Source: Golubevia sp. BC0850
Lineage: Eukaryota; Basidiomycota; Exobasidiomycetes; Golubeviales; Golubeviaceae
NCBI GenBank assembly: GCA_012976225.1
Contig: JAAVVG010000024.1
Span: 186,001-250,000 of the forward strand
Direction of reading: 5' to 3'
Length of the DNA: 64,000 nucleotides
The translations under genes were made by a program, and so were the position numbers. Each line of letters opens with the position of its first letter. Within the stretch, counting starts at the first letter, position 1. Of this stretch, positions 24,302 through 49,840 are shown piece after piece. The notes under the pieces are model-generated. The model was given only the letters and a program-made list of their open reading frames with translations. It did not search any database and was not told the DNA's origin.

Positions 24302-25194
24302 AGGGAAAACACGCCTTAGATCATCGAAAATGACTTCAATCTTCTACATATACCTCACTCAAACTCTCTCGTTCTTTCTCTGTTGTTGTAAATGCCCGTC
24401 ATGCCCGCCGTAGTTTTCATGCTTGTTTGCTGAATCGGATCTCTTTTGTGTTACTTTACTTTCAAATTCTCTGTCAAAAGAACAGCCTAAAGTTCTCGGC
24501 AGTTTCTAAATCGTAAGATAAAAAGGGTGAGGTCAGCAGAACACAGAGGAGAGGCACGGGAAGGGGTAGATGTTGAACCTTTGTCCTCTTCCCGAGGATC
24601 TTCTCCTTCCTACATACACACTTCCTTCGGCAGTCCAGACGCTTGAATCAGCGAGATTCAGGCGTCGATAAAAGAACCTAGACTAGCGGCAAGTATGAAC
24701 CGAAATTTGAAGGGGAGGCTGAGATCACGTGGAATGGTCAAGACCGTTATCCCCTCCTCCAAGTGAGACAGCAATCCTCGAAAAATGAGGTCATCCCGCA
24801 TACTAGCCGATTCCAGATTTTCGTTTTTCAGTCAACACTTGAACCTTTAAAACAAAGACCTGTCGAAAGATTTTCCTTTCTTTCCCTTTCCTACCAACCC
24901 ACTTCTCTTCTACCTCTTCGCCTGCTACTTTTGCTTACTCTGTCCTCTCGTCGACTGGTTCGACATCTTCCATTCTCAATTGCTCAGGAGCAACAAACAA
25001 AGAAACAAGCAAGTCTTGGAACTCTTCAATCTCAGGGGCCCATCCTTTCGCCAAGTCGAATCATCAAACATTGAAAGAGAAATCTAGTTCATCCAGTAAC
25101 TACTCCTCTCTCTCTCTCTCTCTCTCTCTCTATTCTTCAATCCAATTCTTCATCCTTCAAACTTCAAACTTCACTCTCCGCTCATCAACTTTCA
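24302..25194. other. Intergenic with CT-rich leader of the PRM10-like gene
   Basis: A 26-bp CT dinucleotide run lies at 25106-25131, 64 bp before the ATG. An open frame at 24763-25074 has no convincing protein features and ends before the CT run. Nothing else identified. Confidence 0.45.
25106..25131 (+). repeat. CT microsatellite
   Basis: Thirteen CT units in the 5' leader of the PRM10-like gene; such pyrimidine tracts are common in fungal leaders. Confidence 0.9.
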
Positions 25195-29228: not shown

Positions 29229-32041
29229 TTAACACTCTGCGAGAAGGAGGAAACCAGTGAAGTAGAACGAAGTCAGTGAAGGGTCTCTTTCGCACCTCTT
29301 TACTTCTCTCGAGAACTTCGAGAACACTCACCGATTCGCATTCCTTGTTCTGCCATTTCAAATCTGACACCCAATCCACCTTCAGGATCCGCCTCGACCT
29401 CCCTCAATTCCTGTAAGATTCTATCTTGCATAGATCTTGGATCCACGGCTCTGGCATTGTCGTCATTTTTGCTGTTGATGCTGCTGGTCGTGGAGTCTTT
29501 CCTTCCAGAAGTAGACGAGTTGGAAGTGTTGGGAGGTCGAGCGTAGCTTGGGAACAAAGCGGTCTTGACGTGGATGATAACCACAGCCAATCCTTTCAGA
29601 GTTGAGAGCATCTCTTCGTCCGAGATCCCAGCTCCAGCCCCACCTCTGACCACCGCCATTGGAGAAGGAGGGATGGTCAGGAGGTTGTTCCCATTCTTCT
29701 GAAGAGATCTTCTTTTCTCTAGAATGACGTATCTTGCCAGAGTCCGAAGCTCTTGATAAAGATGAGTGACCGAGAGATGGCCGTAGAGAAATTCGGTAGG
29801 GTGAGAAGCCTGGATGGAGAGGTGAGAGGAAGAAGAAAACTTCAGAAGAGTGTTTACGAAGGGGACAAAACGATAGAATCATCTCTACTCACAGGAAAAC
29901 TGCACTCTAGGAAAACAGTGTTGAGCTTTCCTTGGACGAATCGCTTCGCAGCATGTTGCCAAACGATGTGGTTTCGAGGAGATTGAGAAATACAATCTGG
30001 CTCGACGTCTCCAAAGAACTGAAGGGGGGGAGGGGAAGAGAGAAAACATCGTATCGGCGTCAGAGAGAAGAAATCTGGCTTGAAGAACTTTGCAAGTATG
30101 CTCACCAAGACCTCTTTCCCAGTCCTTTCATGCCTGATGAAGAAGGCTGTCGAGTCTAAAGCTGGAGGACTCTTATCCACGCTGACTCTTCGGCGCATTC
30201 CACCAGGTTTGTGAGAAGGTGTCCCTGCTTCCTCCAAGGGACCAGCCCCAGGCTTTGAGAGGTTCCCGATTGCAGCTTTCTCGGATCCTTGCGCGGTGCG
30301 AGGTCGCCTAGTCTTGCGTGTAGCAGTTGGTGGATTAGCAGAGCTGGACTTGACTCTTGGAGTTTGGAAAGAAGAAGTAGGAGGAGCTGAAGCTAAAGGC
30401 GTTGGAGGTAAAGAAGGCAAGCTTCCTCCATGTTCGTCTTCTGAACCAGGGTTCGTACTTGGACTTGGAGACGTGCCTCTTTCGGTTTCCGCTGGGGTTC
30501 CAGAAGTAGAAGAAGGTTCCAAAGTAGCAGATGGGGCGAAGGGACTAGTAAAGACAGGCCTCTCGCCAGGTGGAAGAAGGGAAGAAGTTGAGGGCCCAAT
30601 CGGTCCACCAAAAGAGTTTCCAGATCCATTCGACGATCTTCTTTCGGGCTCGTCTGAGCTACTTCCCATCCTGAACATTTGCTGAGCTGAAATAGCGCCA
30701 CTGAGAGGCAGAGAGTAGCGTTTGCTGAAGTAGGCTGCTTCAGGGCTGGAGGTTGGGTAACTTGGGGTTGGAGTCGGCGGAGCAGGAGGAACAGCTGGAT
30801 TCAAACCATGCGATAGAGCGAATGGTAGGACTGTCAATACTTCTGACAACGAAGTTGGCCGCTGAGCTTCGAGACTGAAAAGAGAAGAATCGGGCGGGAA
30901 GAAGGCCGAGAGGGTTCAGCTTCAATTCAACCAGGTCGAGCGATATAGACTTCAGAAACAAGGAGGTAGCTTACCTTCGCATGTGATAGACCGTATGTGG
31001 CTCATCTTCTTTCCAACTAGCCAGCTTGGGCCAAATTTTTCCATTGAACAGATCCATGATGTTCTCCAAAGTGGGAGTCAATCCATAGACGGATCTCTTG
31101 CCGGGAAGGCTTGCAGAAGAGAGAACGAGTCCTAGGATATGATCCAAATGAGCATGAGAGATCAGGAAAGACTTGGCAAAAGAACCTATCAGACCTGCTC
31201 TCAGAGCTGGAGAATCCAAATCGCGAGGGAAGTCGAAGTCATGAAAGGCAGAGTTGGGACCTGTCCTCTCGCAGACATGCTTCAAGGCGCCGAGCCAGGA
31301 TCCTGAGGGAATAAAGGAGGGGGAAAGTTAGTATAAGATATCGACTCTCACAGAGCCATTTGGCAGAAAGACAAAGGCCTCGGGGATGGAGAGGTCTCTG
31401 ACTTGACCCTGCTCTATCTCTCCTTCCTCTATCTGTGACCCCAGCCATCCTCTCTCTCTCCCCTCTCGATGCTACTCACCACCTTCGACTACTACAGTAC
31501 CAGCTTGCCAAGGCATGTCTGCAGGTTTCACTAGATAACAAGAGCAATCGCCTTCCAAAGGGCCACCTCCCACTCCCAAGCAAACGAAGGTGAAGCTTGG
31601 CTTCTGATATTGAGGTTGTAGTTGAAGATGAACTGGACCATCGTTGGCAGAGATTGGAGAGAAGTTCAAGTTAGATTGTTGAGGAGGAGAAGAAGGAAAA
31701 GAATTGAAAGAATTCGAGTTGGAGTTGTTGGATGAGGAAGAGGAGGATTGGATTGGATGAAGGTTCTGCATTGAAGGAGGAGATCCTGGTAACCTCGTTG
31801 ACTTTGAAGTTGGAGTGTTAGTCGCAGTGCTTGGGCCTGTGCTTGTGCTTGCGTTCGTTGGACTTATGGGAATCGAATGATTAGAAGAAACGAAAGGTTG
31901 ATTCGGGGAAGTGTAAGAGGGTAGGTAACTGGAAGAGTGCTGCTGCTGATAAGCTTGCTCGGCTCGAGGGACAGGCTGCTGCTGTTGCTGCTTTGAAGAG
32001 CTGTTGCTGGTCTTTCGATTAGAGAATGGATTGGAAACCAT
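29229..32041 (-). CDS. PDE1: Class II (PDE1-type) 3',5'-cyclic-nucleotide phosphodiesterase, 6 exons
   Basis: Exons 32041-31480, 31302-30975, 30874-30106, 30018-29893, 29809-29332 and 29236-29229 give 756 residues in phase. The first 150 residues are Gln/Ser/Asn-rich. The metallo-beta-lactamase-fold core begins FTFVCLGVGGGPLEGDCSCYL and contains the class II signature SHAHLDHILGL (metal-binding His and Asp). FFGDVEPD, LNTVFLECSFP and FLYGHLSVTHLYQEL follow, as in fungal PDE1, which hydrolyses cAMP and tunes PKA signalling. A long Ser/Pro-rich insert (about 30850-30200) separates the two halves. The last exon is eight nucleotides (completing GMRIEC). The first 503 coding bases lie inside the 2,089-bp inverted duplication, and a second, truncated copy of them is at 47774-48276. 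Confidence 0.9.
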
Positions 32042-33627
32042 GGCAGAGCTCTGTCCTTGATTCCTTTGACCTCTTTTGAAGATGGGATGGGTTGAAAGAC
32101 AGAGGAGGAGGAGGAGTCTCTCGATCTCTCTCTGGGCTTGTGCTGCTGCAGCTCGTGGGCTCCGCTCAAGAACTTCGGTGCTCAATATCGATTTTCATCG
32201 ACTTGATCCTCGCTCTCTCTAAGAGCAAAGTAAGAGTAAATCATCCGAATTGGCTAGTAGGTAGTGAGAGTCTATTTCTTTATTTCATGTCGATTCGTTT
32301 TGTTATTTACAGGTACAGCACTCGCGATTCTCTCCCCTCTTTCCACTCCCAATCTTATCTAATAAGCATCTTACAACGAACAGAAACCAAGTTGGACCAA
32401 ACTAATAGAGGAAAGCATGACAGATGAGGAATAAAGAGGAACGAGGAACGGGAAAGAGGCGACGAGACCAAGGGGGTTCGTTCTGAGAACCGCCTTCTCC
32501 TTTTTTGATGTTTTTTTTGGATTTTATTTTTTTCATTTTTTTGACTTTTTGAAGAACGGAAGTCTATCTCTATCTGGAACGAGAAGGTATAGGTGAAGGA
32601 GAAAGGAGAGAGAGAAGGTTGCGAGATAGTCTCTTGCTCGCAATGGAATCGGTTCCTCTGGGAGGTCGATCAGGCTGCGGAAGCAGTCAACTCCTTTTTG
32701 GTTGAGGCAGTGTTGACTGGTAGATGACGAGGAAGTAGAGAAGGCCAGGATGGTCAGTTTCAATTCGAATACACAGGGGAGGTGTCCTAGGTCTTCTTAC
32801 TCACAATTTCGAGTCTTGATCCCTCCAGTCTTTGGAAGTAAAGTTGACCCCTGAAGTTCAGCATCAATCTCACTAGCACAAGCTCTACCTTCTTGGATTC
32901 CCCACACTACTAAAGATTGACCGCGACGACAGTCTCCAGCGGCCCAGACCTTGTCGACGCTGGTACGATAAGGGCGAGATCCCTTGAGATCGTCAGCCTT
33001 GATGTTGGATCGTCCGTCCTGTTTGAAGGAAATTCAGAGGAAGAAAAAAGGTCAGAGATTGACTTTGGTTAGGATCAACCACCAACAAGGAACAGGTGGT
33101 TGTGAAGGAGACAACGAATCTCATCTTCATGTGAACTGACCTGTTCGATTCCCATAGTCTTGAGAGCAGCGTCCTCTGGTCCGAGGAAACCCAGACACAA
33201 GAAGCAGAGCTCGGCAGGGTAGAACTCTTCCGAACCTGGAACCTTGTTCATGGACCACCTGGAGGAGAAGGGGGAAGGCGAGGGAGAGAGGGGTCAGAAA
33301 GAGATTCCACTTGATTATCATACGATCAATCACTCAAAAAGTAACGACAGCTGATGATCAGAACACTCACTTTCCACTGGCATCCTTGTCCCACTGAACA
33401 CGAACGGTGTTGAGACCCTTGAGGTTTCCTTCTTCGTCCTTCTCGAAAGAGGTCGTGGAGATCTGGAACTCTCTTGGATCCTTTCCGAACTTGTCCTCGA
33501 CTTCGTTGTGACCGTAATCACGACGGAAGATACGAGGCCATTGAGGCCAAGGATTGTCCTTGGCACGAGACTCAGGTGGCTGAGGAAGCAGCTCGAAGTT
33601 GACGACCGACTTGGCTCCGTGACGAAC
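31539..33627 (-). repeat. Inverted duplication, left copy (2,089 bp)
   Basis: Read on the minus strand, this segment is the same sequence as 46188-48276 on the plus strand. Both copies are exactly 2,089 bp. I compared coding, intron and intergenic stretches spread over the copies and saw no difference. The left copy contains the GLT1 3' end, the GLT1-PDE1 spacer and the first 503 coding bases of the intact PDE1. Confidence 0.95.
32670..33627 (-). pseudogene. GLT1 3' fragment (about codons 1947-2157), promoterless
   Basis: The fragment carries the end of GLT1 exon 5 (33627-33371), exon 6 (33258-33141), exon 7 (33018-32805) and the proposed last exon (32716-32670), with intact introns. It encodes part of the C-terminal FAD/NAD(P)-binding region, starting in [14 protein letters not shown]. 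There is no upstream exon and no recognisable start, so it cannot make glutamate synthase. Beyond 33627 homology to GLT1 stops abruptly. It is a by-product of the inverted duplication, not an independent decayed gene. Confidence 0.9.
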
Positions 33628-33656
33628 CATCTAGGACACACTACAGCAGTTCTTGT

Positions 33657-33676
33657 GACCCCCGTTCTGGGGGGTC
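33657..33676. repeat. GC-rich hairpin, arms GACCCCC/GGGGGTC
   Basis: Perfect 7-bp arms with a 6-base loop, preceded by TTGT. It starts 30 bp outside the end of the left duplication copy. Confidence 0.7.
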
Positions 33677-34951
33677 GATGAGCTCTGGTTCGGGGTGTTG
33701 GGGCTCTTTCTAGCAACTTTGACAGGTCCCACTAGAAAAACGATATAACCCAAGATTCAGAAGAAAAGTTTGAAGGCTAGTTTGCCCCATCAGAATCACG
33801 TTGAGTTGCATCTTACTCTATTGATTTTGGAGCGGTCACACCTACTCTTTATGAGGCTAATTTCGGCGTCTAGCTTCAATTTTTGCCTTTAGTTTTTTCA
33901 GTATGATACAAACAAAACTTGAGAACCACTATTGGAAGTTGGTAGATCCATGTGTTCCAGAAGATCCATAGGGTTTCCATTTGGGACTTTCTTCGGAATA
34001 GCGTCTGAAACGGAGAAAAAGATTCATCTCCAATCTTCAACATTTCCATGAATATTTAAAAGAGCATCTTGAATTTCAAAGTCTGCCGTCAAAAGCCGTT
34101 TTGGAGGCTGAGTAATTTCACAGCCTGGACTGGAAGTTGAGCCTTTGGTGGCGTAGGCTCTGCAGAGTGGCAAAACGTCAAAAGACAGGCACTCAACCTT
34201 TCGTGCCTTGGTCGGATCTTACTCAAGACCGATTAGACAGAAGTTAATCATTTGTTGCTTGGTTTCAGAGAATTTGGAAAGTTTTAGAACACAGAGGGTA
34301 CCTCTCTCGGCTCAAGCTTTAGAGATCCTCACCAGGCCACGGGTGCAGCCACTGTTACCGACACCTCACATTCTCGAGAGGTTGCTTGAGCATCTCACAT
34401 GTATTCTAAGAGACTTCTCATCATTCAATGACTAAAGAAGACCGTCAACAATAGAAACAAGATGCCATGGATGTTGCTTGTCCCCGTCTTTCCCCTGTGA
34501 CGGAAACAATTCCCACTCTCTCGGAACAGTCATTTCTAATGTCAGCATGGAGCTGGTGTAGCTCTCCTCCTAAATATCTTATCATCTACATAGAGTGATC
34601 TGTGATATTGTGAGACTTGCCTAGGAACAAGACGCCAGAGAAAGCACTCTGCATGGGCCTCAACTTTGGAGTTGAAGCCTTGATGAAGGGAGCCCAAAGT
34701 ACAAATCCTTGGGTTCCGTTTGGTCTAACTGGCAAGGAATCTTTTTTCAAGATGTAGGTAATGTTGTGAGGCAATTTGCGAATTTCACATCCGATCGAAA
34801 GGGTTAGTGTGTCAGTCCTAAGATACACAGCTCTCTCGAATCGAGAGTGACAAGATCTATTGGAAAAACAGAGAAGCATGGGTGCTAAACCCATTCATTC
34901 CAGAATTTGGAACATTTGATCGCTGCGAGGCGATCTATTAGACTAAGGCTA

Positions 34952-35300
34952 CTCTCAGTCGATTTCGAAGCAGCAAATTGACTCAGAGCTCCCAAACTGT
35001 CCCCTGACTGACCCCTCTCACTCCACTCGATATTTCAGAATTGAATCAGAGATCCAAGGGCTGGCTGTTGACCTAGGCTCTCTCACGCGATTTAGACTTT
35101 CAGATTGACTCAGCTCATTTGGACTGTGAGACTGTCTCTCGATTTGGAGGTTCAAAGTCGACTGAGAACCGTACGCTCTAAAGACTGTGACCTCTCTCAC
35201 TCAAATTTACTGCTTTGAGATCAACTGAGAGCCCTCAAGCTTCTTCTGATCATCGAGGGTCTCTCACTCGATTTCATGGTTCTAGAATCGACTGAGAGCT
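34952..35300. repeat. Array of six degenerate palindromic repeats
   Basis: Six units begin near 34952, 35014, 35078, 35135, 35192 and 35260. Each runs from a CTCTCACTCGATTT-like left arm to an ATCGACTGAGAGC-like right arm, so each unit is an imperfect inverted repeat of about 38-45 bp; the period is about 55-68 bp. The sixth unit is the cleanest; the others differ by substitutions and small length changes. Confidence 0.7.
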
Positions 35301-35425
35301 CGGATTTCCACCTCTTCTTTTCTGAAAGCATCGTATTTAAAGCAAAAAGTTGACGATGGAGCCGAAGTTTCGAGGCAGCTTTATAAGTAGAATCATCTCA
35401 AAGGTTCTCCCCGCAGGAGTCTGTG

Positions 35426-35444
35426 ACCCCCTACGTAGGGGGGT
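35426..35444. repeat. GC-rich palindrome CCCCCTACGTAGGGGG
   Basis: A 16-bp perfect palindrome (35427-35442) flanked by A and by GT, preceded by CTGTG. It shares the TGTGACCCCC...GGGGGG form with the hairpin at 33657-33676. Confidence 0.75.
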
Positions 35445-35664
35445 GTATAATTCCGACGTTGAAATCGAGGCTGTGAAGTAAAAGAGTGACAGTGAGAGAC
35501 CAACGAATGAATGAAGAGGAGAAACAATGCGTCCGACCATGAAGGGGAGCGGGAACGGAGAAGGGACAAAGAGGCCGGAGGGAAAGTAGTAAAAGAAAAG
35601 GGTTGAAACGAAACCGACAAGACTTAGGAAGAGAACTTGTGCACAAACTTATCAGAAACGTCGT

Positions 35665-37679
35665 CTAAGGGAAAGATTCCTTCTCCGGTTCGTGAAACAG
35701 AGCTAGTGTTGTACATCCTCTGAGAGTTTCGTAACCTGATTTCTCGAGGGCCACGAACAAGCCATAATTTGAATCTGGAGGTGCGTAAGAGAAAAGTTCT
35801 AAATCAACGAGACCTCCATCACGTTGAGCCCAGCGTGGGTTGAGATTGAACGAGTCCGTTGCTCCGATAGGTGAGATGTCGGAATGAGAATTTGGCTGGA
35901 AAGAGTCGAGATTCCAGCTGAAGGTTTGCGAATGGTTTGAGGCGGAAGTAGAGGGTGATGAAATCGAAGCTCCTGCTAGCCCTACGTAGGAGAACTGTGC
36001 AGTACGGACATCGTTGTTCTCGAAGTCGATGCCACGATCATGATTGAGTCTCTGTAGAGCCAAAAAAAAATGGACAGGAGAAAGAAATCAGGATCAGAAG
36101 GTCCATTAGTCAAACCTACCTCTTTCAGTCTTTCTCTATCTCTTCCACCTCCCTTTCCTTCACAGCCAAGCCATTTTGAAACTCACCCAAAAGTTAGATG
36201 GCTGAAGGGAGAAACCTATCTGGAAGTTTCCAGAAGCACCAGCATCCTTGACTAGGAAAACTTTGGAAACCGAAGCTGAACTTGGAGAGAAGAACCCATT
36301 TCCACCATTTCAAGGTCTCCGAAGTGGGTCCCATCAAACTTTCTGTCTGCTCTAACCACTCCAGTTCGGGCTAGAACGACGACAGTAGTAGCAGAGACCA
36401 GGTTCGTAGTAGAGTAGCTCGTCTGAGTCGAGGTGGCGACTCGAACAGTCTCCGTAACCGTGAGACTTTCAGTCAAGGTTGTGGTTCCAACAACCTCGAT
36501 TTTTTCATCAGGAGCTACAGTGTTGCTGATGTCAGAGAGAGCATGCCGAAAATGGGAACGTTGGAGATGAACGGGGAAAGAAAGATCAGTCGACAAGTCG
36601 ACAAAAGGAAAAGCGAACAGACACTCACATGAGTCTCAACTTTTCCGTTCTTACACTTGCAGCGAAGATTGGAAGAGTCGTACTTGAGGCCATCCTTGGT
36701 CTTCTTGCAAGTCTCAGTCTTGGCAGAAGATTTGACTCACGAGCACTGACGATCGCAAGCAGAGGCGTTTTTTTTGCAGAAGGTGGATTTGGAGTTCGCT
36801 CTCTTGTTGATGACGTCCTGGAAGACAGTTGGGAAAGGGAGAGTGAGAATGGTCAGATGAAGACTCTCAATCCGAGATGAAGAAGCTGCAATGGCCTATA
36901 CTAACCTTGGCGACTTGAACTTGAATCAAAGGAACCTCCTCGACGACTTCGAGTTCCTTGACTTTGACTCCATTGACAGTGTATTGAGTCACTGTAGCTA
37001 CGGTAGAGATTGATTCGGTCTCGAAGGTGGTGGCGATGGTGGTAGGTTCGGTGACGGTCGTCTTGTCGGTTACGGCTGAGGTGACGATGGAGCTCTGTAG
37101 GTTGGAGAAGAAAGCGAGAAGTCGGTCAGATCGACCAAGAGCAAGATCCACCAGACCTCAAGATACAACACTCCCCTTGGTAGAGGTAGTAGTAGCAGGG
37201 TGAGCACTAGAGACCTTTTTCAAGGCGGCTACGAAGGGAAGAAAATGAGCCGACGGTGAGAACTAGGAGCAGCAGAGAAAGACAACACCGCAGTCGGCAT
37301 TCACTTTGAGCTTTGTCCTTTCCATTACAATGGCATCCGAAATGATAGATTCTGTTCTTTGGAGGGACCTGGGAAAGGATAGGTGGGGCGAGGTGGTTAG
37401 AAAACATGTTGCAAATCTGGACTTCGACCTCTCCTCTCACTCAACTGACCTTAGAACAAACGTAAGGGATGATTTGTCTTCCAGTCTTGTTCTTCAACAA
37501 GTGTCCGCACAGGCACGATCAAAGCTACCGCAGAAGGCGTCTATCTCCTTGGGTGGTTTAGGATTGGGAGCTCCAGCTCCTCCGGCTGAACCATCTGGAA
37601 TGGAAGCGATGACTTGAGTACCCAGGAGGGTGACGGCTGAGATTCCAACGAGGAAGAGAGAGAATCTCAAGCGAACCAT
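35665..37679 (-). CDS. Secreted Cys-rich protein with two similar Cys blocks; frame apparently interrupted
   Basis: The ATG at 37679 opens a signal peptide (MVRLRFSLFLVGISAVTLLG). Block 1 reads FCGSFDRACADTC, then, in another frame, KNKTGRQIIPYVCSK, spliced to VPPKNRIYHFGCHCNGKD. A Thr/Val-rich stretch follows (36900-37095), then block 2: FCKKNASACDRQC, ETCKKTKDG and LRCKCKNGK. A second Thr-rich exon (TLTESLTVTETVRV) and a C-terminal domain ending at 35665 complete it. The two blocks share spacing F-C-x5-A-C-x3-C...C...C-x-C. Frame continuity fails after the third Cys of each block: a one-base shift in block 1 near 37490 and an in-frame TGA near 36715 in block 2. A GTGAGT there could be spliced to 36575 in phase, skipping half of block 2. 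It may be a decaying or alternatively spliced gene. Function unknown. Confidence 0.5.
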
Positions 37680-39732
37680 GAAGGGAGAGTAGGGAGTGGA
37701 AAGAAAGGGGATTGGGAGCAGTGAGGTTGAGGAGAGTGGTTCTTGAGGTGGGAGAGAGAGGGAGAGAGAAGGGGGGTTGGGGAGGAGGGGTGGGGAAGTG
37801 AAGAGGAGGAAGAAAGAGAGAACGATTAGATCTTCACCTTCACTACTGATCCTCTTTTCCTTTTCGCATTCCGACCCAGCGACGTAGTCTGCCCTCTTCT
37901 CGCCCCTCCTCCTTCCTTTTCTATTCTTAGTCTTGGGATCCCGTTCTACTGTACCTGCATCTCGGATCCGCAAGCAAAGATGAGAATGACAATTGAACCA
38001 TTCCGTATGTGAGGGGGCGGTAAGTGAAGACCCGCCGCAGTTGGAAGGAGGACGGAGCGAGGTGAGTTGGACCGTTACCCCTTCATTTTAACCAAAAGAC
38101 GGGACCTCCCCTCTCCCTCTTTCATTTACTTCTCAGGCACATTTTCTCGGGTCAGTAAGTTCCTTGGAAAAATTCGGGAGTCCCGTTAATCGTCAACAGC
38201 GACCCTTGGACTGAACAGAAGTTATTGCTTTCGAGGCTGTCTTCAATCACCTTCGTCCGCATTTGGAACAGAAGTGGCTTCGATCCCTGCGAGAGAAGAA
38301 ATCTCTTCTCACTGAGAATCCGAGATTCTTCAAAGATTAGAGATGAGACCTCATTCCAGATTTAGTTTAAATGAAAGATCTTGGAGGCAAAGCTTGAGGA
38401 CTTGGAACGCACAGTTTTCAGCTTCTCTCATCCCACCCTCCAAGTTCTGTCTTCCAATTTGCACTAATCAGATATTCCGATACCTCTGATCCCATTCTAA
38501 AGTATCCAGGGAATGAAACTTAACGAGAGTCGACTTCACACACAGAAATGAGGTCGAAAGAGAGCCTGACTTTGGAAGGGCTGATGAAGTTGGTGGCAAA
38601 GCATCTTTTGAAGCAACGAGAGAGGAAAAAGAAGGCATAAGATTTGAAAGTCTGATTTCTCTCATTCACTCTCAGTGTGTTGACATCGAGTCATTAAGGA
38701 GGTCAACTCAGAGCGAAAGAGAAGGGAACGTTTAACAGCTAACTTGTTCGAGACCAGAAAGCTCACGAAATGGACTTGTCGAATTTGTTAGAATTCGTTT
38801 CTTACATACTGAGTAATATGGTATACCAGTACTGTGAGTTGAGCTGCATTATCGACCAATAGAGATGTCGAGACTGGAGATAGCAGGGATTAATACGCCG
38901 TGTGTACGTGTCTTCTGAAAAGCGGGGAGGAACTGATAAGAAGATAGAAAGACGGGGATCCATAATGATGTCGCTGGAGGTTATTGAGTGTGGATGTTGA
39001 TCTTAATGAGATCAAAAGAAGGCCGATATTTATAAGGGGGAGCTTATTGGATTAAGTACATGTGTGTACTTGAGCAGTCAATGGGAGAAGCCGGATCAAC
39101 GAAATAGGCTCAGTGCGATTCTTCAATGAGCAAATGGGAGAGTCGCGATTACGAGAAGATCTTTTCCCTCTCCTTCCCAACTAGACCAGGCATCACAACC
39201 ATTAAGGATTACCCTACTTTGTTAACAAACAGGTCATCCAATAATGTAAGTTATCAATTCCACCTGATGACCGCATTTTATCCAACTGAGGGAGCGCAGC
39301 CAGCTGACCTTGTACATCTGTTTTCTTCTCATTCCTTCTTCTTCCCTTCCCACCACTCAAAAGCTCTTTGCCTCTTCTTCTTCCTCCTCTCTCTTCTCTT
39401 CCTTCAAATATCAAAACTCAAATAGTCCCTACGACTTCAATCAGCCCCAGATACAGGCATCGAAAACTGTCTTGCGTTGGTGAGTTTTCAAGAGATTGAT
39501 AGATGTTGGAGCAGCTTGGTAATCGGGAAGTATCATCAATTCAATCCAATCCAATCTCTCCTCTTCCTCTTCCTCTTCCAAATCTTATTCTAATCATCTC
39601 TATTCATTCTTTCTATTCCCTTCATCTCACTCTCGCAGAACGTAGTAATCCCATCCAACCACTCAGACTTCATCCACTCAATTCCCCCGAACCTTGCTCT
39701 TCTTCCAAATCAATCCTCAACCTTCCATCAAT
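37680..39732. other. Intergenic, shared upstream region of the Cys-rich gene (-) and GLT1 (+)
   Basis: Two kilobases between divergent starts. A TATAAG lies at 39031-39036, far (about 700 bp) from the GLT1 ATG, and pyrimidine-rich sequence (39340-39400, 39550-39600) precedes GLT1. Scattered frames (38468-38665, 39126-39425) lack protein character. No RNA gene recognised. Confidence 0.4.
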
Positions 39733-42700
39733 ATGTCTACCTCAGCTCAACGTCGTGAACTCCACCAACAGCTCAACATGGACATGCAAAACGAAGAAGC
39801 TACCACCTATGTCGACCTAGATGTAAATGGCGCCTCCGAGGTAGAGAGAGATGCTTCCTCTTGGGCTGGTAACCTTCCTGCCGCTCAAGGTCTCTACGAT
39901 CCAGACAACGAAAAGGACTCCTGTGGAGTAGGTTTCATGTGTCAAATCAAAGGAAAACCAGCTCACAAGATCGTCAGTGACGCAAAGCAGTTGCTCTGCA
40001 ACATGACTCACAGAGGAGCTGTGGGAGCAGATGCCAGAGATGGAGATGGAGCTGGAGTCATGACAGGTCTTCCAGATACTTTCTTCCGTAGAGAAGTTGA
40101 AAGAGACTTACAGTGTCAACTACCAAAGCTAGGAGAATACGCTGTTGGTAACGTTTTCTTCGATCCAAAGGATGAGAAGGCAAGAGCTGAGCACATGAAC
40201 ATCTTCGAGCAACTAGCTTTGGATCTTCACCTCAGAGTCTTAGGATGGAGAGAAGTTCCAGTCGATAACACTATCTTAGGACCTTCTTCACTATCTAAGG
40301 AACCAAAGATCCTTCAACCCTTCGTAGTCTTGGCTGACTCTTATGGAAGAGACACCTCTGCTCCGAAGGAATCTTCTACTCCATTCGACTCTCAGTACTT
40401 CTCTCGTCAACTCTACGTTTTGAGAAAATCTGCAACTCACAAGATCGGTTTACCTAAGTGGTTCTACATTTGTTCCCTTTCAAACACCAACATCGTTTAC
40501 AAGGGTCAACTCTCTCCAGTTCAGGTTTACAACTACTTCTACGATCTTAACAATGCTCATTATGCTTCTCACTTCGCTTTGGTTCATTCAAGGTTCTCTA
40601 CCAACACTTTCCCTTCTTGGGACAGAGCTCAGCCAATGAGATGGGCTGCTCACAATGGTGAGTAATCGATTTGGAAAGAGGGAGGAAGGAAGGGAGGCAG
40701 CAAGGAGGACATCGGGAGCGGGAAACGGTCTGGTGCTCGCTGGAAGGATGGGGTATGCTACCTTTTCTCTCAAGCAGCAACGTCACTGCTTAACAAAGCT
40801 TTCATAGAGAGGTGCTCTGGCTTCCTTTGAGAGGAAATTTTCTCCTCGAGAGCAGCATTACCCAAGCTTCTCGCCACTCAAACAATTTGCTTAGATAACT
40901 TCTCTTACTAATCCCTCGCCCTTCCCTCTCATCTTCCACCCCTTCTCTTAGGTGAAATCAACACCATCAGAGGAAACAAGAACTGGATGCGCGCTCGTGA
41001 GGGTCAGCTCCGTTCCGAGACCTTCAAGGACGAGCTCGACATGCTCTACCCAATCATCGAGAATGGAGGATCCGATTCTGCCGCTTTCGACAACGTTCTC
41101 GAACTTCTAGTAGTCAACAACGTCCTTACTCTACCTCAAGCAGTCATGATGATGATTCCAGAAGCTTGGCAAGGAAACGAGGACCAGATGGAGCCAGAGA
41201 AGGTCGCTTTCTACAAGTGGGCCGCCTGTCTGATGGAGCCTTGGGACGGACCTGCTCTCTTCACCTTCTCTGACGGAAGGTACTGTGGAGCTAACTTGGA
41301 TCGTAATGGTCTACGTCCATGTCGTTACATCATCACCGACGACGACATCATGATCTGCGCTTCCGAAGTCGGAACCATCTACATTGACCCAATCAAGGTT
41401 CTCGAGAAAGGTCGTCTCCAGCCAGGAAAGATGCTTCTCGTAGACACTGTCGAAGGAAGAGTCGTAGACGACAGAGAGCTCAAGATGTCTACTGCTCAGA
41501 GAGCCGACTTCGCAGCTTGGTTGGACAACCAGATGCTTCGTCTTCCAGAGATCGCAGACACCATCCGTCGTCTCACCAACAACGACATCGCTCCAAAGCT
41601 GGATGATGAGCGGCTCAGCACTGACCCAAAGCTTCTCGCTTTCGGTTACACTTCAGAGCAGATCTCTCTCCTCATGCTTCCTATGGTTTCGGAAGGAAAG
41701 GAATCTCTAGGATCCATGGGTAACGACGCTCCCCTAGCTTGTCTAGCCAACGCTCCTCGTCTCATCTACGAGTACTTCCGTCAGCTCTTCGCTCAAGTCA
41801 CCAACCCTCCTATCGATCCGATCCGTGAATCCGTCGTCATGTCTCTAGAGCAGTACGTCGGACCAGAAGGAAATCTCCTCGAGATGGACCCAACTCAGTG
41901 TCATCGTTTGATGCTTCCAAGTCCTATCCTCACCATCGACGAGATGAACGCCCTCAAGAAGCTCGACACTGTCCACGCCGACTGGCCAACCAAGGTCATC
42001 GACATCACCTTCGACAAAGGAGCTGGTCTCGACGGATACGAGAAGGCTCTCGACAGAATCTGCTCAGAGACCTCTCAAGCCATTCGTGACGGATGTCGTA
42101 TCGTCGTTCTATCCGACAGGAACGTCGACAAGGACAGAGTTGCCATCTCTTCTCTCGTCGCCTGTGGAGGAGTTCACCATTACTTGGTCCGTAACAAGGA
42201 ACGTAGCAAGATCGCTCTTATGATCGAATCTGGAGAAGCTCGTGAGGTTCACCATATGTGTGTTCTATTGGGTTACGGAGCTGACGCTGTCTGCCCTTGG
42301 CTAGCCATGGAGGCCATGCTCAAGGTCTCCAGAGAAGGTCTTCTCAAGCAAGAGATCTCCAACGACAAGGTCATCGGAAACTGGAAGACTGCCGTCGATG
42401 CTGGAATCTTAAAGGTCATGTCCAAGATGGGAATCTCTACTCTTCAATCTTACAAGGGAGCTCAGATCTTCGAAGCTCTTGGATTGGCCGACTCTGTCAT
42501 CGAGAGATGTTTCGCTGGAACCGCTTCTCGTATCCAAGGATCCGACTTCCACCTCTTGGCTATGGACGCTCTAGAGTTCCACGACCGTGGATACCCATCT
42601 CGTGACACTGTCACCGTTCCAGGTCTTCCAGAATCCGGAGAGTACCATTGGCGTGATGGAGGAGAGGCTCACGTCAATGATCCAGTCTCCATCGCCAACC

Positions 42701-45700
42701 TTCAAGACGCTGCTCGTGAGAAGAACCAAGGAGCTTGGGATGCTTACTCCAAAGCTTCTCACAACTCTGTTAAGGCTACCGCTCTTCGTGGAATGCTAGA
42801 GTTCTCCTTCGAGAAGGCTAGACCTATCCCAGTCGATCAGGTCGAGCCATGGACTGAGATCGTTCAACGTTTCTGTACTGGAGCTATGTCTTACGGATCT
42901 ATCTCTATGGAAGCTCACTCTGCTTTAGCTATCGCTATGAATCGTCTAGGAGGAAAGTCCAACACTGGAGAAGGAGGAGAAGACGCTGAACGTTCGATCC
43001 CTCTTCCAAACGGAGACTCTCTTCGTTCCAAGATCAAGCAAATCGCCTCTGGTCGTTTCGGAGTTACTTCCAACTACCTCGCTGACTCTGATGAGCTTCA
43101 AATCAAGATGGCTCAAGGAGCCAAGCCTGGTGAGGGAGGAGAACTTCCAGGACACAAGGTCTCTGCTTCCATCGCTCGTACTCGTCACTCTACTGCCGGC
43201 GTAGGTCTTATCTCTCCACCTCCTCATCACGATATTTACAGGTTAGTACCGCTTGAGAAACAGCTCTTCTCCTCTACTCTCCGACAAGTGGAACGTTTTC
43301 TTAACCTTCTCTCTTCTCCCCCTTTTCTCTCTCTCTTTTCTTTTTTCTCCTGACAGTATCGAAGATCTTAAGCAGCTCATCTACGACTTGAAGTGTGCCA
43401 ATCCTCGTTCTCGTGTCTCCGTCAAGCTCGTCTCAGAGGTCGGTGTAGGTATCGTTGCCTCAGGAGTAGCCAAGGCCAAGGCCGACCACATCCTCATCTC
43501 TGGTCACGACGGAGGTACTGGAGCTTCTCGTTGGACCGGAATTAAGTACGCTGGTCTTCCATGGGAGTTGGGTCTTGCTGAGACTCATCAGACTCTGGTT
43601 CTCAACGATCTTCGTGGACGTGTTACCGTCCAGACTGATGGTCAATTGAGAACTGGAAGAGATGTCGCCATCGCTTGTCTTCTCGGAGCTGAAGAGTTTG
43701 GTTTCGCCACCACCGCTCTTATCGCTATGGGTTGTATCATGATGCGTAAGGTGGGTATCCGAAATAGACGAACATTGAAGGGAAGCTTTGATTCTCGAAC
43801 TCGAGCGAGATCGCTGACTTTCTCTTCCCCTTTCCCCACCTTTCTCTTTCTTCAGTGTCACTTGAACACCTGTCCAGTCGGTATCGCTACTCAAGACCCA
43901 GAACTTCGTGAGAAGTTCGCCGGTCAACCAGAGCACGTCATCAACTTCTTCTACTACCTCTCTGAGGAGCTTCGTGGTATCATGGCCAAGCTAGGTCTTC
44001 GTACTATCAACGAGATGGTTGGACGTTCTGATCTCCTGAAGGTCAACGAGAGTCTTCGTACTCCAAAGACCAAGAACCTCGATCTCGGTCCTCTGCTCAA
44101 GGCTGCTCACCAGATGCGTCCAGGAGCTGCCACCTACAAGGTTCGTCAACAAGATCACAAGCTCTACATTCGTCTCGACAACAAGTTCATCGACGAAGCT
44201 GAGCCAGCTCTTACCGAAGGTCTTCCAGTCCAAATCGACTGTGACGTAGTCAACACCGATCGTGCCCTTGGAACCACTCTTTCTTACAGAGTCTCCAAGC
44301 TCTACGGAGAGGAAGGTCTTCCTCGCGATACCATTCACATCAACGCCAAGGGAAGTGCTGGTCAATCCTGTGGAGCCTTTTTGGCTCCTGGAATTACCAT
44401 CGAGCTCGAAGGAGATGCCAACGATTACGTCGGAAAGGGAATGTCTGGAGGTCGTTTGATCGTCTACCCACCCAAGGTCTCTTCCTTCAAGGCCGAGGAG
44501 AACATCATCGTCGGTAACGTTTGTCTCTACGGAGCCACCACTGGAAACGCCTACTTCCGTGGTATCGCTGCTGAGCGTTTCGCCGTTCGTAACTCTGGAG
44601 CTCACGCTGTTGTCGAAGGAGTTGGTGATCACGGATGTGAATACATGACTGGAGGTCGTGTCGTCATTCTAGGATCCACTGGTCGTAACTTCGCCGCTGG
44701 TATGTCTGGAGGAATCGCTTACGTCTTGGACATGAACAGAGACTTCCACAGCAAGTGTAACACCGAGATGGTGGAGCTAGGACCAGTCAAGGATCCACAC
44801 GACATTGCTGAGCTTCGTAACCTCGTCGAGAACCACCGTCACTACACTGGTTCTACCGTCGCCGACCACGTCATTCACGAGTTCCACCACCTTCTCCCAC
44901 GTTTCGTCAGAGTCATGCCTCTCGATTACAAGCGTGTTCTAGAGGAGGAAGCTGCCAAAGCTGCCGCCGAGAAGAAGCGCTCCAGTCACGTCGATCTGCG
45001 TGGAACTCTCTCTCGTCATGGTTCTCAAGCTGACGTCACTATCGCTGATGATGCCAAGTCAGTCAAGAGCGACGCTGGAGACGAACCTCACGTCCATCGT
45101 TCTGAGCCAGCTGTCGTCGATGTCGAAGACTCTATGGTCGACGACGAGACTGCCAAAGCTCGTCTCAACAAGCTAGACAAGACTCGTGGCTTCATGAAGT
45201 ACAAGCGTCTAGGTGAACACTACCGTACTCCAGGTAAACGTGTCAAGGACTTCAAGGAGCTCTCTACTCGTCTCTCTGAGGCCGAGCTCAAGTACCAGAC
45301 CGCTCGTTGTATGGACTGTGGAGTTCCTTTCTGTCAATCCGACACTGGTTGTCCGATCTCCAACGTTATTCCTAAGTGGAACGACCTCGTCTTCAAGGGA
45401 CAGTGGAAGGATGCCGCCAACGCTTTGCTCATGACTAACAACTTCGGAGAGTTCACTGGTGAGTACGCTTTCTTTTGTTTCCTTTCTGTTTGTGTTCCTC
45501 TACAGCTCGCTTTGAGACTTGTCGCTGATTCACTTCTGTTCTTTCCTTCTCTCTTCTCCAGGTCGTGTCTGTCCAGCTCCTTGTGAGGGTGCTTGTGTTC
45601 TCGGAATCACCGAGCAACCAGTCGGAATCAAGACTGTCGAAGCTGCCATCATGGACAAAGCTTGGGCTGAAGGTTGGATGGTCCCTCGTCCACCTGATCG

Positions 45701-47145
45701 TCGAACAGGACGTACTGTCGCTGTCGTAGGATCTGGACCAGCTGGTCTCGCCTGTGCTGATCAATTGAACAGAGCTGGTCACTCCGTCACCGTCTACGAG
45801 CGTCAAGATGCCATCGGAGGTCTTCTTTATTACGGAATCCCAAACATGAAGCTCGACAAGAACGTCGTCTCTCGTCGCGTCAAGCTCATGGAGGACGAAG
45901 GAATCAAGTTCGTCACCAACGCCGCTGTCGGTGTCAACGTCGATGGAAACGAGCTTCGAGCTCAGAACGATGCTGTCGTCCTGGCTACTGGAGCTACCTG
46001 GCCTCGTGATCTCAAGGTTCCAGGTCGTGAGGCCAACGGAGTTCACTTCGCTATGGACTTCTTGACCAAGAACACCTCCAGTCTAGTCAAGTCTGGTCTC
46101 GAAGACAAGAATTACATCGATGCCAAAGGCAAGAACGTCATTGTCATCGGAGGAGGAGATACTGGAAACGATTGTATCGGAACCTCAGTTCGTCACGGAG
46201 CCAAGTCGGTCGTCAACTTCGAGCTGCTTCCTCAGCCACCTGAGTCTCGTGCCAAGGACAATCCTTGGCCTCAATGGCCTCGTATCTTCCGTCGTGATTA
46301 CGGTCACAACGAAGTCGAGGACAAGTTCGGAAAGGATCCAAGAGAGTTCCAGATCTCCACGACCTCTTTCGAGAAGGACGAAGAAGGAAACCTCAAGGGT
46401 CTCAACACCGTTCGTGTTCAGTGGGACAAGGATGCCAGTGGAAAGTGAGTGTTCTGATCATCAGCTGTCGTTACTTTTTGAGTGATTGATCGTATGATAA
46501 TCAAGTGGAATCTCTTTCTGACCCCTCTCTCCCTCGCCTTCCCCCTTCTCCTCCAGGTGGTCCATGAACAAGGTTCCAGGTTCGGAAGAGTTCTACCCTG
46601 CCGAGCTCTGCTTCTTGTGTCTGGGTTTCCTCGGACCAGAGGACGCTGCTCTCAAGACTATGGGAATCGAACAGGTCAGTTCACATGAAGATGAGATTCG
46701 TTGTCTCCTTCACAACCACCTGTTCCTTGTTGGTGGTTGATCCTAACCAAAGTCAATCTCTGACCTTTTTTCTTCCTCTGAATTTCCTTCAAACAGGACG
46801 GACGATCCAACATCAAGGCTGACGATCTCAAGGGATCTCGCCCTTATCGTACCAGCGTCGACAAGGTCTGGGCCGCTGGAGACTGTCGTCGCGGTCAATC
46901 TTTAGTAGTGTGGGGAATCCAAGAAGGTAGAGCTTGTGCTAGTGAGATTGATGCTGAACTTCAGGGGTCAACTTTACTTCCAAAGACTGGAGGGATCAAG
47001 ACTCGAAATTGTGAGTAAGAAGACCTAGGACACCTCCCCTGTGTATTCGAATTGAAACTGACCATCCTGGCCTTCTCTACTTCCTCGTCATCTACCAGTC
47101 AACACTGCCTCAACCAAAAAGGAGTTGACTGCTTCCGCAGCCTGA
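39733..47145 (+). CDS. GLT1: NADH-dependent glutamate synthase (GOGAT), single-chain, 8 exons
   Basis: Exons 39733-40657, 40952-43241, 43357-43750, 43856-45458, 45562-46444, 46557-46674, 46797-47010 and 47099-47145 give 2157 residues, close to yeast GLT1. After a 63-residue propeptide, DSCGVGF supplies the N-terminal nucleophile Cys64 of the class II glutaminase domain. The FMN/2-oxoglutarate domain includes [33 protein letters not shown] carries 3Fe-4S cysteines split by an intron. The beta part has [16 protein letters not shown] and [13 protein letters not shown] (4Fe-4S) and [17 protein letters not shown] and [13 protein letters not shown] (dinucleotide sites). It makes two glutamates from glutamine and 2-oxoglutarate. 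Without the last intron the stop would be 47018 (2144 aa); I prefer the spliced end for its GTGAGT donor and in-phase tail. Its last about 210 codons are duplicated at 33627-32670. Confidence 0.95.
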
Positions 47146-48276
47146 TCGACCTCCCAGAGGAACCGATTCCATTGCGAGCAAGAGACTATCTCGCAACCTT
47201 CTCTCTCTCCTTTCTCCTTCACCTATACCTTCTCGTTCCAGATAGAGATAGACTTCCGTTCTTCAAAAAGTCAAAAAAATGAAAAAAATAAAATCCAAAA
47301 AAAACATCAAAAAAGGAGAAGGCGGTTCTCAGAACGAACCCCCTTGGTCTCGTCGCCTCTTTCCCGTTCCTCGTTCCTCTTTATTCCTCATCTGTCATGC
47401 TTTCCTCTATTAGTTTGGTCCAACTTGGTTTCTGTTCGTTGTAAGATGCTTATTAGATAAGATTGGGAGTGGAAAGAGGGGAGAGAATCGCGAGTGCTGT
47501 ACCTGTAAATAACAAAACGAATCGACATGAAATAAAGAAATAGACTCTCACTACCTACTAGCCAATTCGGATGATTTACTCTTACTTTGCTCTTAGAGAG
47601 AGCGAGGATCAAGTCGATGAAAATCGATATTGAGCACCGAAGTTCTTGAGCGGAGCCCACGAGCTGCAGCAGCACAAGCCCAGAGAGAGATCGAGAGACT
47701 CCTCCTCCTCCTCTGTCTTTCAACCCATCCCATCTTCAAAAGAGGTCAAAGGAATCAAGGACAGAGCTCTGCCATGGTTTCCAATCCATTCTCTAATCGA
47801 AAGACCAGCAACAGCTCTTCAAAGCAGCAACAGCAGCAGCCTGTCCCTCGAGCCGAGCAAGCTTATCAGCAGCAGCACTCTTCCAGTTACCTACCCTCTT
47901 ACACTTCCCCGAATCAACCTTTCGTTTCTTCTAATCATTCGATTCCCATAAGTCCAACGAACGCAAGCACAAGCACAGGCCCAAGCACTGCGACTAACAC
48001 TCCAACTTCAAAGTCAACGAGGTTACCAGGATCTCCTCCTTCAATGCAGAACCTTCATCCAATCCAATCCTCCTCTTCCTCATCCAACAACTCCAACTCG
48101 AATTCTTTCAATTCTTTTCCTTCTTCTCCTCCTCAACAATCTAACTTGAACTTCTCTCCAATCTCTGCCAACGATGGTCCAGTTCATCTTCAACTACAAC
48201 CTCAATATCAGAAGCCAAGCTTCACCTTCGTTTGCTTGGGAGTGGGAGGTGGCCCTTTGGAAGGCGATTGCTCTTG
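46188..48276 (+). repeat. Inverted duplication, right copy (2,089 bp)
   Basis: Partner of 31539-33627. It starts inside GLT1 exon 5 (at GTTCGTCACGG) and ends inside PDE1 exon 1 (at GCTCTTG). Left of it the intact GLT1 continues; right of it the sequence is unrelated to PDE1. Confidence 0.95.
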
Positions 48277-48403
48277 CTATCTCTCACGAAGGTCCAAACG
48301 AAAGCTACTTATGCAAGCAAGACAAGAGAGTTTCAAGACTGGCTACGAGCATGAAACAATCGATCAGCATCGAAAGAAGTCGCAAAGAGAAGATGTTGAT
48401 TGA
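47774..48403 (+). pseudogene. Truncated PDE1 5' copy fused to unrelated sequence (209-codon frame)
   Basis: The first 167 codons are those of PDE1, including the Gln/Ser-rich region and the start of the core (FTFVCLGVGGGPLEGDCSCY). After base 48276 the frame runs into 42 unrelated codons (SRRSKRKLLMQARQ...) and stops at 48401-48403. The metal-binding HxHLDH motif is absent, so no phosphodiesterase activity is possible. The upstream 628 bp after GLT1, which includes whatever promoter PDE1 uses, is present, so the fragment could be transcribed and yield a chimeric low-complexity protein. Confidence 0.8.
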
Positions 48404-48491
48404 TATCGGAGCAGAAACGAGAAAACAAAATTCATGACATAGCAAATCATCTCGCTTGCTGGTCCAATTCCCACCCGCTGACAACAATTTC

Positions 48492-49840
48492 TTAAGTGAA
48501 AACCTTGACGCTGTTCACAGCGAAGTAGGCCTCTCCGTATGAGTCACCGTTGTTGCTGACTTGACTTTGACAGCTTCCGAATTGTGGAATACACTGTCCG
48601 TTGGTGGCGTAAAGTCTGGAGTGGAAGAAAAGTAAAGGACGCAGAGAGAGAGAAGTCAGAGAAAAAGCCTCTCGATGTTTGCCTGCACTGAAGCAAGGAA
48701 CTCACCCGTCATCCCTAACAGCATCACCACATAGGGTAATGTCGAAGATGATGTTGTGGTTTCCGAAGTCTTGTGGGCAAGGGTTTCCGAAATTGGCTCC
48801 AGGGGTTGGGAAAGTAGAGGTGTCGACAGAGCCACCTCCAACGTATTGGGCTTTCTCACTTGGGTTGAAGTACCAGACCTTGATTCCAGCTCCGGAAAGA
48901 TCTCTCTCCATGACGAAAGCTCCTCCTCCTTGATTGTTCATTCCACTTGGGGAAGGGTTGGCGGTGAGCTGAACTCCACAACCTAGATTGTTGGAGTCAG
49001 CGACACAGTTGGTGGAATCAGTGTTAGTTCCGGTTTGACCAGAAAGCGGGCTTGGGACGGTACATCCTGGATTTGTGTGTAGAGTAGCTTGATCGAAGTT
49101 GAAGGCGTCAGAGAAAGCTTCGAAGATGTCGATTTCTCCTCCGGCTGGGTAAGGCCCGTTGCTTGGCTCAGCTAGAGTCCACCAAGCTGGGGAGAGATAC
49201 AATTAGAGAAGATCAGAATGTCGAAGTGTCAGAAGCTGGACTTCTACGTTTCCTGGTATCAATTCGGGTGGTCTACTCACCTGGCCAGACGGAGCATCCG
49301 GTGGGTAGATGGTTGAAGTCCAAGACGTAAACACCATCCCCGAAAGCTTGGGTAGAGCTGATACGAACACTGTTACGGTGAGCACCGACCTGTGGAGCTG
49401 TGTCGACCTTCATGTGGAAAGATCCGTCACTAGCGATCGTAGCGAGTTGTTGGTCTTGGGCAGCTTGCAATCCTTGGAAGTTAACGAATCCGTGAGTTGG
49501 ATCGCCTTGAGTGAAGTAGCTCCATTGGTTGCCGTCCTGGATAAATCAAATAGAAAAGAGATTTAGAACAGAGTCAGCGGGGAGGAAGCAGGGGAATACT
49601 TGTAAGACATGGAGGCGATGAGAGATTCTCGAAGGCAAGAACACGTGTTCTAGATGGCGACAAGATTGCCACTCTAAGCTGAGTTTCTTCCCTTCCGGTC
49701 GGACTTTTACGATTTCGGTTGAAGTGTAAACTCACCAAGAAAGATTGTGGGTCATATTCCTTGTTAAGGTTGTAAGATCTGGCTGAAACGGCAGCGGCAG
49801 ATAAAAGAGAGACGGTGGCGAGAGAAGCTAGGCGGTTCAT
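48492..49840 (-). CDS. Secreted GH16 endo-1,3(4)-beta-glucanase-like protein, 4 exons
   Basis: Exons 49840-49736, 49536-49281, 49186-48706 and 48615-48492 give 321 residues in phase. The N-terminus (MNRLASLATVSLLSAAAVSA) is a signal peptide. The lichenase-type core shows DGNQWSYFTQGDPTHGFVNF, GAHRNSVRISST, AWWTLAEPSNGPYPAGGEID and the catalytic motif GEIDIFEAF (nucleophile and acid/base Glu). NNQGGGAFVMERD, IKVWYFNP and NIIFDITLCGD complete the sandwich. Length and order are those of fungal GH16 glucanases acting on cell-wall beta-glucans or mixed-linkage glucans. No GPI signal: the protein ends in NSVKVFT. It lies directly beyond the right end of the duplication. Confidence 0.92.

What the first reader, a model, noticed from the sequence alone, without database searches (positions are those of the whole stretch)
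31539..48276. Identical 2,089-bp inverted duplication joining GLT1 and PDE1 ends
The minus strand of 31539-33627 equals the plus strand of 46188-48276. Lengths match to the base, and exons, introns and spacers that I compared show no difference. The unit is the GLT1 3' end plus the PDE1 5' end, so GLT1 and PDE1 were once direct neighbours in tandem. Lack of divergence even in introns means a very recent event, ongoing gene conversion, or an assembly fold-back.
Basis: seen in the sequence. Interest (0 to 1): 0.85.

Follow-up and report, generated by a model that had tools for sequence, protein, structure and literature searches.

The report
Inversion scar with duplicated gene ends
In a fungal genome, a 12.6-kb piece of chromosome carrying most of a glutamate synthase gene appears to have been flipped recently; the break made a second, perfectly identical copy of 2,089 bases spanning the ends of two neighbouring genes, which spared both genes, a kind of scar best known from fruit flies.

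Summary
The unit (D) holds the last 958 bp of GLT1, the 628-bp GLT1-PDE1 spacer and the first 503 bp of PDE1. GLT1 is complete only through the right copy (39733-47145) and PDE1 only through the left copy (32041-29229); each copy also carries the other gene's stump. The ancestor therefore probably had GLT1-D-PDE1 once, and the 12,560 bp between the copies has changed orientation. An inversion with D doubled at one breakpoint, as in the 'staggered-break' inversions of Drosophila, explains this in one event. A simple assembly fold-back fits poorly, because two separate false joins would be needed, but reads could not be examined. No related genome was available, so the ancestral order is deduced, not observed. 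New member of a known kind; modest interest.

The parts
31539..33627 (-). Left copy of D: GLT1 3' stump (from inside exon 5), GLT1-PDE1 spacer, PDE1 5' end running on into intact PDE1
   Evidence: Identical to 46188-48276; gene models
46188..48276 (+). Right copy of D: 3' end of intact GLT1 (958 bp), spacer (628 bp), truncated start of PDE1 exon 1 (503 bp)
33628..46187 (.). 12,560-bp segment between the copies (S), inferred to have inverted: dispersed repeat, a secreted-protein-like gene remnant, and all of GLT1 outside D
39733..47145 (+). GLT1, glutamate synthase, intact, 8 exons, 2,157 aa; exons 39733-40657, 40952-43241, 43357-43750, 43856-45458, 45562-46444, 46557-46674, 46797-47010, 47099-47145
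   Evidence: Spliced by hand, no internal stop; GATase_2, Glu_syn_central, Glu_synthase, GXGXG, Fer4_20, Pyr_redox_2
29229..32041 (-). PDE1, class-II cAMP phosphodiesterase, intact, 6 exons, 756 aa
   Evidence: Spliced by hand; PF02112 at 2.5e-36; 33 relatives at E <= 1e-3
32670..33630 (-). GLT1 3' stump in the left copy: 212-codon frame whose in-frame ATG is the last 3 bases outside D; GLT1's own upstream region is absent
   Evidence: partial Pyr_redox_2
47774..48403 (+). PDE1 5' stump in the right copy: whole spacer upstream, then a 209-codon frame whose last 41 codons (and one straddling codon) come from flanking DNA; no Pfam family at E <= 1e-3
33628..35454 (-). Low-copy hairpin-bearing repeat (relatives on C3 and C6); its apparent terminus abuts D at 33627/33628; no stop-to-stop frame of 150 aa or more
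   Evidence: the 35454 edge is by eye
48277..48700 (+). Right flank that truncates the PDE1 stump; only one placement found in the assembly

Best explanation
A recent small chromosomal inversion with its breakpoint duplication still intact. Ancestral order, reading along the present minus strand from GLT1: GLT1 body - D - PDE1 body, D being single. Two breaks occurred: one spread over D (two nicks or breaks about 2.1 kb apart, at GLT1 exon 5 and PDE1 exon 1, on opposite strands or on sister chromatids), the other at the outer end of a dispersed hairpin-bearing repeat about 12.6 kb away. The segment between was rejoined backwards and the overhangs were filled in (or the sister copy supplied the second D), so each end of it now carries one D. 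GLT1 took one D and PDE1 the other, so both genes kept their coding sequence, and the whole spacer (GLT1 3' region, PDE1 upstream region) is present at each; the by-products are a GLT1 stump without its promoter and a PDE1 stump fused to unrelated DNA. Shown: the identity, the edges, the intact/stump arrangement, and the junction at the apparent repeat terminus. Inferred: the ancestral order, the single event, and the way the breaks formed. Total identity means recency and/or gene conversion; the present inverted copies could also let the segment flip again without damage to either gene, since by the identity of D both orientations would contain one full GLT1 and one full PDE1.
For: Perfect inverted D copies at both ends of the segment. 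GLT1 and PDE1 are each complete through a different D copy and truncated at the other. 2 full D copies among 6 matches in the assembly; 10 of 10 GLT1 protein matches lie at this locus. The GLT1 stump is joined to sequence resembling a repeat whose C3 and C6 copies stop resembling each other within 1-2 bp of the same place. The ligation points carry little microhomology (2 bp, TG, between D's end and the repeat's end), as in end joining. The same anatomy, including a duplicated fragment from only one of the two breakpoints and truncated gene copies, is described for Drosophila inversions (PMC5080602 and PMC3355041, passages read).
Against: No uninverted relative could be examined, so the ancestral junction (repeat terminus next to 48277) is unobserved. 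A 2.1-kb overhang is long for opposite-strand nicks on one molecule; the Drosophila literature raises the same objection (PMC7584159, passages). Repair copying followed by a flip leaves the same pattern. The likeness of the window's repeat terminus to C6 is modest (80% over 54-55 bp, E 8.9e-5, 1.7e-7) and only three places are known. Reads were not available.
Confidence: 0.62

Rival explanations
1. Templated insertion, then flip. A break at the end of the dispersed repeat was repaired by copying D from the nearby GLT1-PDE1 junction (synthesis-dependent or microhomology-mediated template switching), inserting an inverted D between repeat and right flank. Later recombination between the two inverted D copies flipped the segment.
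For: In the un-flipped order D would sit exactly between a repeat terminus and flanking DNA, like a filler insertion. PDE1 beyond D and the right flank share 5 of 6 bases. Pieces of D's non-coding DNA, in the same order, occur on C18 at about 80-86%, while the adjacent 3,088 bp of GLT1 and 2,639 bp of PDE1 found only themselves, so this region may have been copied before.
Against: Needs two events instead of one. The C18 pieces are only about 80-100 and 227 bp, and GLT1 intron 7 also has a stray relative on C10, so short intron-like sequences may spread by another route.
Confidence: 0.18
2. Assembly artefact: the genome has one D and the assembly falsely joined it twice.
For: Zero divergence; reads and assembly method not seen; the two junctions are known from one assembly only.
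Against: Two separate false joins would have to occur, one of them at an apparent repeat terminus; a fold-back would put the arms side by side instead of 12,560 bp apart. The locus lies inside a 349-kb contig, and the outer flanks had one placement each (right; left).
Confidence: 0.12
3. Transposition-driven event: a transposase acting on the repeat's terminus joined it directly into GLT1 exon 5 (alternative or one-ended transposition), with host DNA duplicated during resolution.
For: The breakpoint coincides with the repeat's apparent terminus within 1-2 bp. Transposon-caused inversions with junctions precisely at the element's ends are documented in maize, and that paper cites rearrangements by non-standard transposition of impala in Fusarium (PMC8225341, passages).
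Against: Those maize inversions carry 8-bp target-site duplications and element ends at the junctions; here 2,089 bp of host DNA are duplicated, the right flank showed no repeat, and the repeat holds no stop-to-stop frame of 150 aa or more (smaller frames were not scanned for transposase).
Confidence: 0.06

Closest known systems
Staggered-break inversions of Drosophila (D. subobscura O8, PMC5080602; D. mojavensis 2h and 2q, PMC3355041; the models are credited in PMC7584159 to Kehrer-Sawatzki 2005, Matzkin 2005 and Ranz 2007); passages read
   Same: [quoted passage not shown] the fragment may come from one breakpoint only; one copy keeps the gene, the other may hold a truncated or decayed piece
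   Different: A fungus; the segment is small (12.6 kb); the copies are perfectly identical; the other breakpoint lies at an apparent repeat terminus; no uninverted relative has been compared
Inversions flanked by large inverted duplications attributed to non-allelic recombination (Atlantic herring, PMC11499932; passages read)
   Same: Inverted duplicates at both ends; possibility of repeated flipping ('inversion toggling')
   Different: There recombination between inverted duplications is held to have caused the inversions, and the copies are 85-99% identical; here D spans two gene ends, so a pre-existing second D would already have had to be a gene-end fragment
Alternative-transposition inversions (maize Ac/fAc, PMC8225341; passages read)
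   Same: A junction at a repeat terminus
   Different: No short target-site duplication pair was seen, only one of the two junctions involves the repeat, and kilobases of host DNA are duplicated

Membership tests
Staggered-break (duplicating) inversion | Inverted copies of formerly single-copy DNA at both ends of one segment | tested here: met
   single-copy origin deduced from the split of GLT1 and PDE1
Staggered-break (duplicating) inversion | Segment between the copies inverted relative to the ancestral order | tested here: inconclusive
   Follows from GLT1 and PDE1 being completed by opposite copies; no relative examined
Staggered-break (duplicating) inversion | Uninverted relatives carry a single copy | not testable with these tools
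   The tool states that the assembly has no relatives in the collection
Non-allelic recombination between older inverted repeats | Repeats older than the inversion and present in both arrangements | not testable with these tools
   Only one arrangement is available
Alternative transposition | Element termini at both junctions with matching short target-site duplications | tested here: not met
   Repeat at the left junction only; right flank found once in the assembly
Assembly fold-back | Inverted arms meeting at one false join with little or no spacer | tested here: not met
   12,560-bp spacer, two distinct junctions
Assembly error of any kind | Junctions absent from single reads; read depth over D not doubled | not testable with these tools
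   No reads held

The most novel reading that the evidence does not exclude
The identical copies are kept so by ongoing recombination, and the 12.6-kb GLT1 segment toggles between two orientations in the population without harm, while the GLT1-PDE1 junction is a recurrent donor of copied DNA (an older, decayed partial copy lies on contig C18).
Probability: 0.1. Interest if true: 0.5.

Novelty: new member of a known kind. Interest (0 to 1): 0.3.

Why it matters
If real, it is an undecayed scar of a duplicating inversion in a fungus. Both edges can still be read to the base, so the debate over how such duplications form (staggered nicks, sister-chromatid breaks, or repair copying) could be tested by sequencing sibling strains. 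It also shows how a break inside two genes can leave both intact, because the broken stretch is copied. It remains a single-locus case of a known pattern.

Tried and rejected
Assembly fold-back: disfavoured, see rivals. Transposition unit carrying D (host DNA captured by the repeat): the C3 and C6 copies of the repeat end in other DNA, not D, so not adopted. Strong folding at the breakpoints as cause: four breakpoint stretches folded as single-stranded DNA were not clearly more stable than shuffles (z 0.74, -0.53, 1.42, 0.72; 153, 50, 186 and 151 of 200 shuffles folded at least as well), although a hairpin with a 7-bp stem (33657-33676) shows in the centroid fold of the first. Microhomology as driver: 2 bp at one ligation point and 5 of 6 bases beyond the D/PDE1 edge; weak.

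Searching C18 for a larger paralogous segment: in the 8,001-bp stretch L017, besides the two D pieces, matches to the secreted-protein-like family at 35.5-37.4 kb and one weak 57-bp match (E 0.002) inside GLT1 were found; no GLT1 or PDE1 protein match at E <= 1 there.

Paper searches: 9 of 10 used. Those aimed at this locus or at fungi (7, 23, 29, 33, 47) listed 0, 0, 5, 0 and 4 papers; none shows a fungal inversion of this type by its title or the start of its abstract. That is a statement about these searches only. The wheat-pathogen study PMC8192914 (passages) counts inverted duplications and inversions as separate classes (380 and 6 new ones in a pedigree) and finds inverted duplications enriched near crossovers.

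Full report
Observation. The reverse complement of 31539-33627 and the plus strand of 46188-48276 are both 2,089 bp and identical at every base; outside these limits the sequences part at once, except for 5 of 6 shared bases after the 31539/48276 edge. The only other BLASTN self-match in the window at E <= 1e-5 is a 26-bp direct repeat. A search of the 25.77-Mb, 64-contig assembly with the left copy plus 100 bp on each side gave 6 matches: the 2 full copies and 4 short ones of 42-227 bp.

What the unit contains. Hand-spliced gene models give an intact GLT1 on the plus strand (39733-47145, 8 exons, 2,157 aa; GATase_2, Glu_syn_central, Glu_synthase, GXGXG, Fer4_20 and Pyr_redox_2 domains) and an intact PDE1 on the minus strand (32041-29229, 6 exons, 756 aa, PDEase_II). 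D holds 958 bp of GLT1 from inside exon 5 to the stop codon, all 628 bp between the genes, and 503 bp of PDE1 exon 1; 1,139 bp are coding and 950 are not. The right copy completes GLT1 and ends in a PDE1 stump frame of 209 codons, the last 41 of them (and one straddling codon) from the flank. The left copy completes PDE1 and begins with a GLT1 stump of 212 codons whose in-frame ATG happens to be the last three bases outside D.

Deduction. Because one copy of D is continuous with the GLT1 body and the other with the PDE1 body, in opposite orientations, an ancestor with a single D between the two genes is the simplest source, and the 12,560 bp between the copies must have changed orientation relative to one side. 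One inversion whose break was spread over D does this in a single step and leaves D doubled. Both genes survive because the broken stretch was doubled: a clean cut anywhere in D outside the 628-bp spacer would have cut one of them (inference).

The second breakpoint. The GLT1 stump is joined at 33627/33628 to sequence that recurs on contigs C3 and C6. The last 54-55 bp are 80% identical to C6 (E 8.9e-5, 1.7e-7), and other parts of 33628-35454 are 85-93% identical to C3 and C6. A search with 111 bp of the C6 hairpin-pair end found 3 matches, at C6, C3 and the window; the window match in that call is the 35.4-kb hairpin, not the terminus. The exact 13-mer GGGGGTCACAGAC occurs 4 times, at these same three loci; with one mismatch allowed there are 19 places, against 9 for the reversed control pattern. 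Such counts are lower bounds by the tool's own note. Aligned, all three copies share the stretch through TAGA(T/A)GG; C3 and C6 then differ within 1-2 bp of the place where the window copy meets D. So the break fell at the apparent terminus of the repeat. In C3 and C6 two short hairpins lie side by side, in the window they lie at opposite ends of the repeat, so the repeat itself differs by rearrangement. The other flank, 48277 onwards, was found once in the assembly.

Mechanism and rivals. In Drosophila, inversions with inverted duplications of single-copy DNA at both ends are ascribed to staggered breaks; I read passages of PMC5080602, PMC3355041 and PMC7584159. PMC5080602 describes a duplicated fragment that belongs to only one of the two breakpoints, as here. 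[quoted passage not shown] at 2.1 kb that applies here too. I therefore put the single duplicating inversion first (0.62) and templated insertion followed by a flip second (0.18). Folding of the four breakpoint stretches as single strands gave nothing clearly beyond shuffles (4 of 4).

Age. With 0 of 2,089 differences the divergence is below about 0.14% (95% limit). This cannot separate a recent event from gene conversion between the copies. The inverted copies could also allow later flips; by the identity of D either orientation would hold one complete GLT1 and one complete PDE1, so a flip should spare both genes (inference, not tested).

Artefact. A fold-back would put the arms next to each other; here two different junctions 12.6 kb apart must both be false. 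The outer flanks had one placement each. I hold the artefact at 0.12 because reads and assembly method are unknown.

A lead. Two pieces of D's non-coding DNA, 80-100 bp from GLT1 intron 6 and 227 bp from the spacer, lie in the same order and orientation on C18 at about 80-86% identity, 8 bp apart and adjoining under the more sensitive settings, upstream of another gene-like frame. Two control stretches next to D (PDE1 remainder, 2,639 bp; GLT1 body, 3,088 bp of it) found only themselves. GLT1 intron 7 also resembles a stretch on C10 at 85% that ends in AG like an intron. These may be traces of earlier copying from the same junction or of intron-like mobile sequences; not resolved.

Organism. 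PDE1 has 33 relatives at E <= 1e-3 in the protein collection (7,991 candidates scored); the best-scoring is 48% identical over 82% of the query, and higher identities (68%, 75%) occur only over 31% and 25% of it. The named fungal rows (Violaceomyces, Testicularia, Kalmanozyma, Sporisorium, Exobasidium, Tilletia and others) belong, from my own knowledge, to the smut subphylum Ustilaginomycotina; one named row is a fern record, probably contamination. So a close relative is probably not represented there.

Noticed in passing
window 33628-35454; C3:546178-547811 (L015); C6:22295-22525 (L016): Low-copy repeat with two short GC-rich hairpins, side by side in C3 and C6 but at opposite ends in the window; no stop-to-stop frame of 150 aa or more in the window copy.
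   Followed up: partly
C18:110821-111135 (L017 1317-1636): Decayed copy of two non-coding pieces of D (GLT1 intron 6 and the GLT1-PDE1 spacer), about 80-86% identical, in the same order, upstream of another gene-like frame.
   Followed up: partly
window 32717-32784 and C10:631028-631095 (L019 1029-1096): GLT1 intron 7 is 85% identical to a stretch on C10 that also ends like an intron; possible introner-like spread of introns.
   Followed up: partly
window about 35478-37720, minus strand: Secreted-protein-like gene remnant with an interrupted frame by eye; partial relatives at two places on C18 (73-84%), one on C22 (76-79%) and a short match on C8; one of the C18 ones lies about 5 kb from the D pieces.
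   Followed up: partly
window 25103-25128 and 62751-62776: Perfect 26-bp direct repeat, the only other BLASTN self-match in the window at E <= 1e-5.
   Followed up: no
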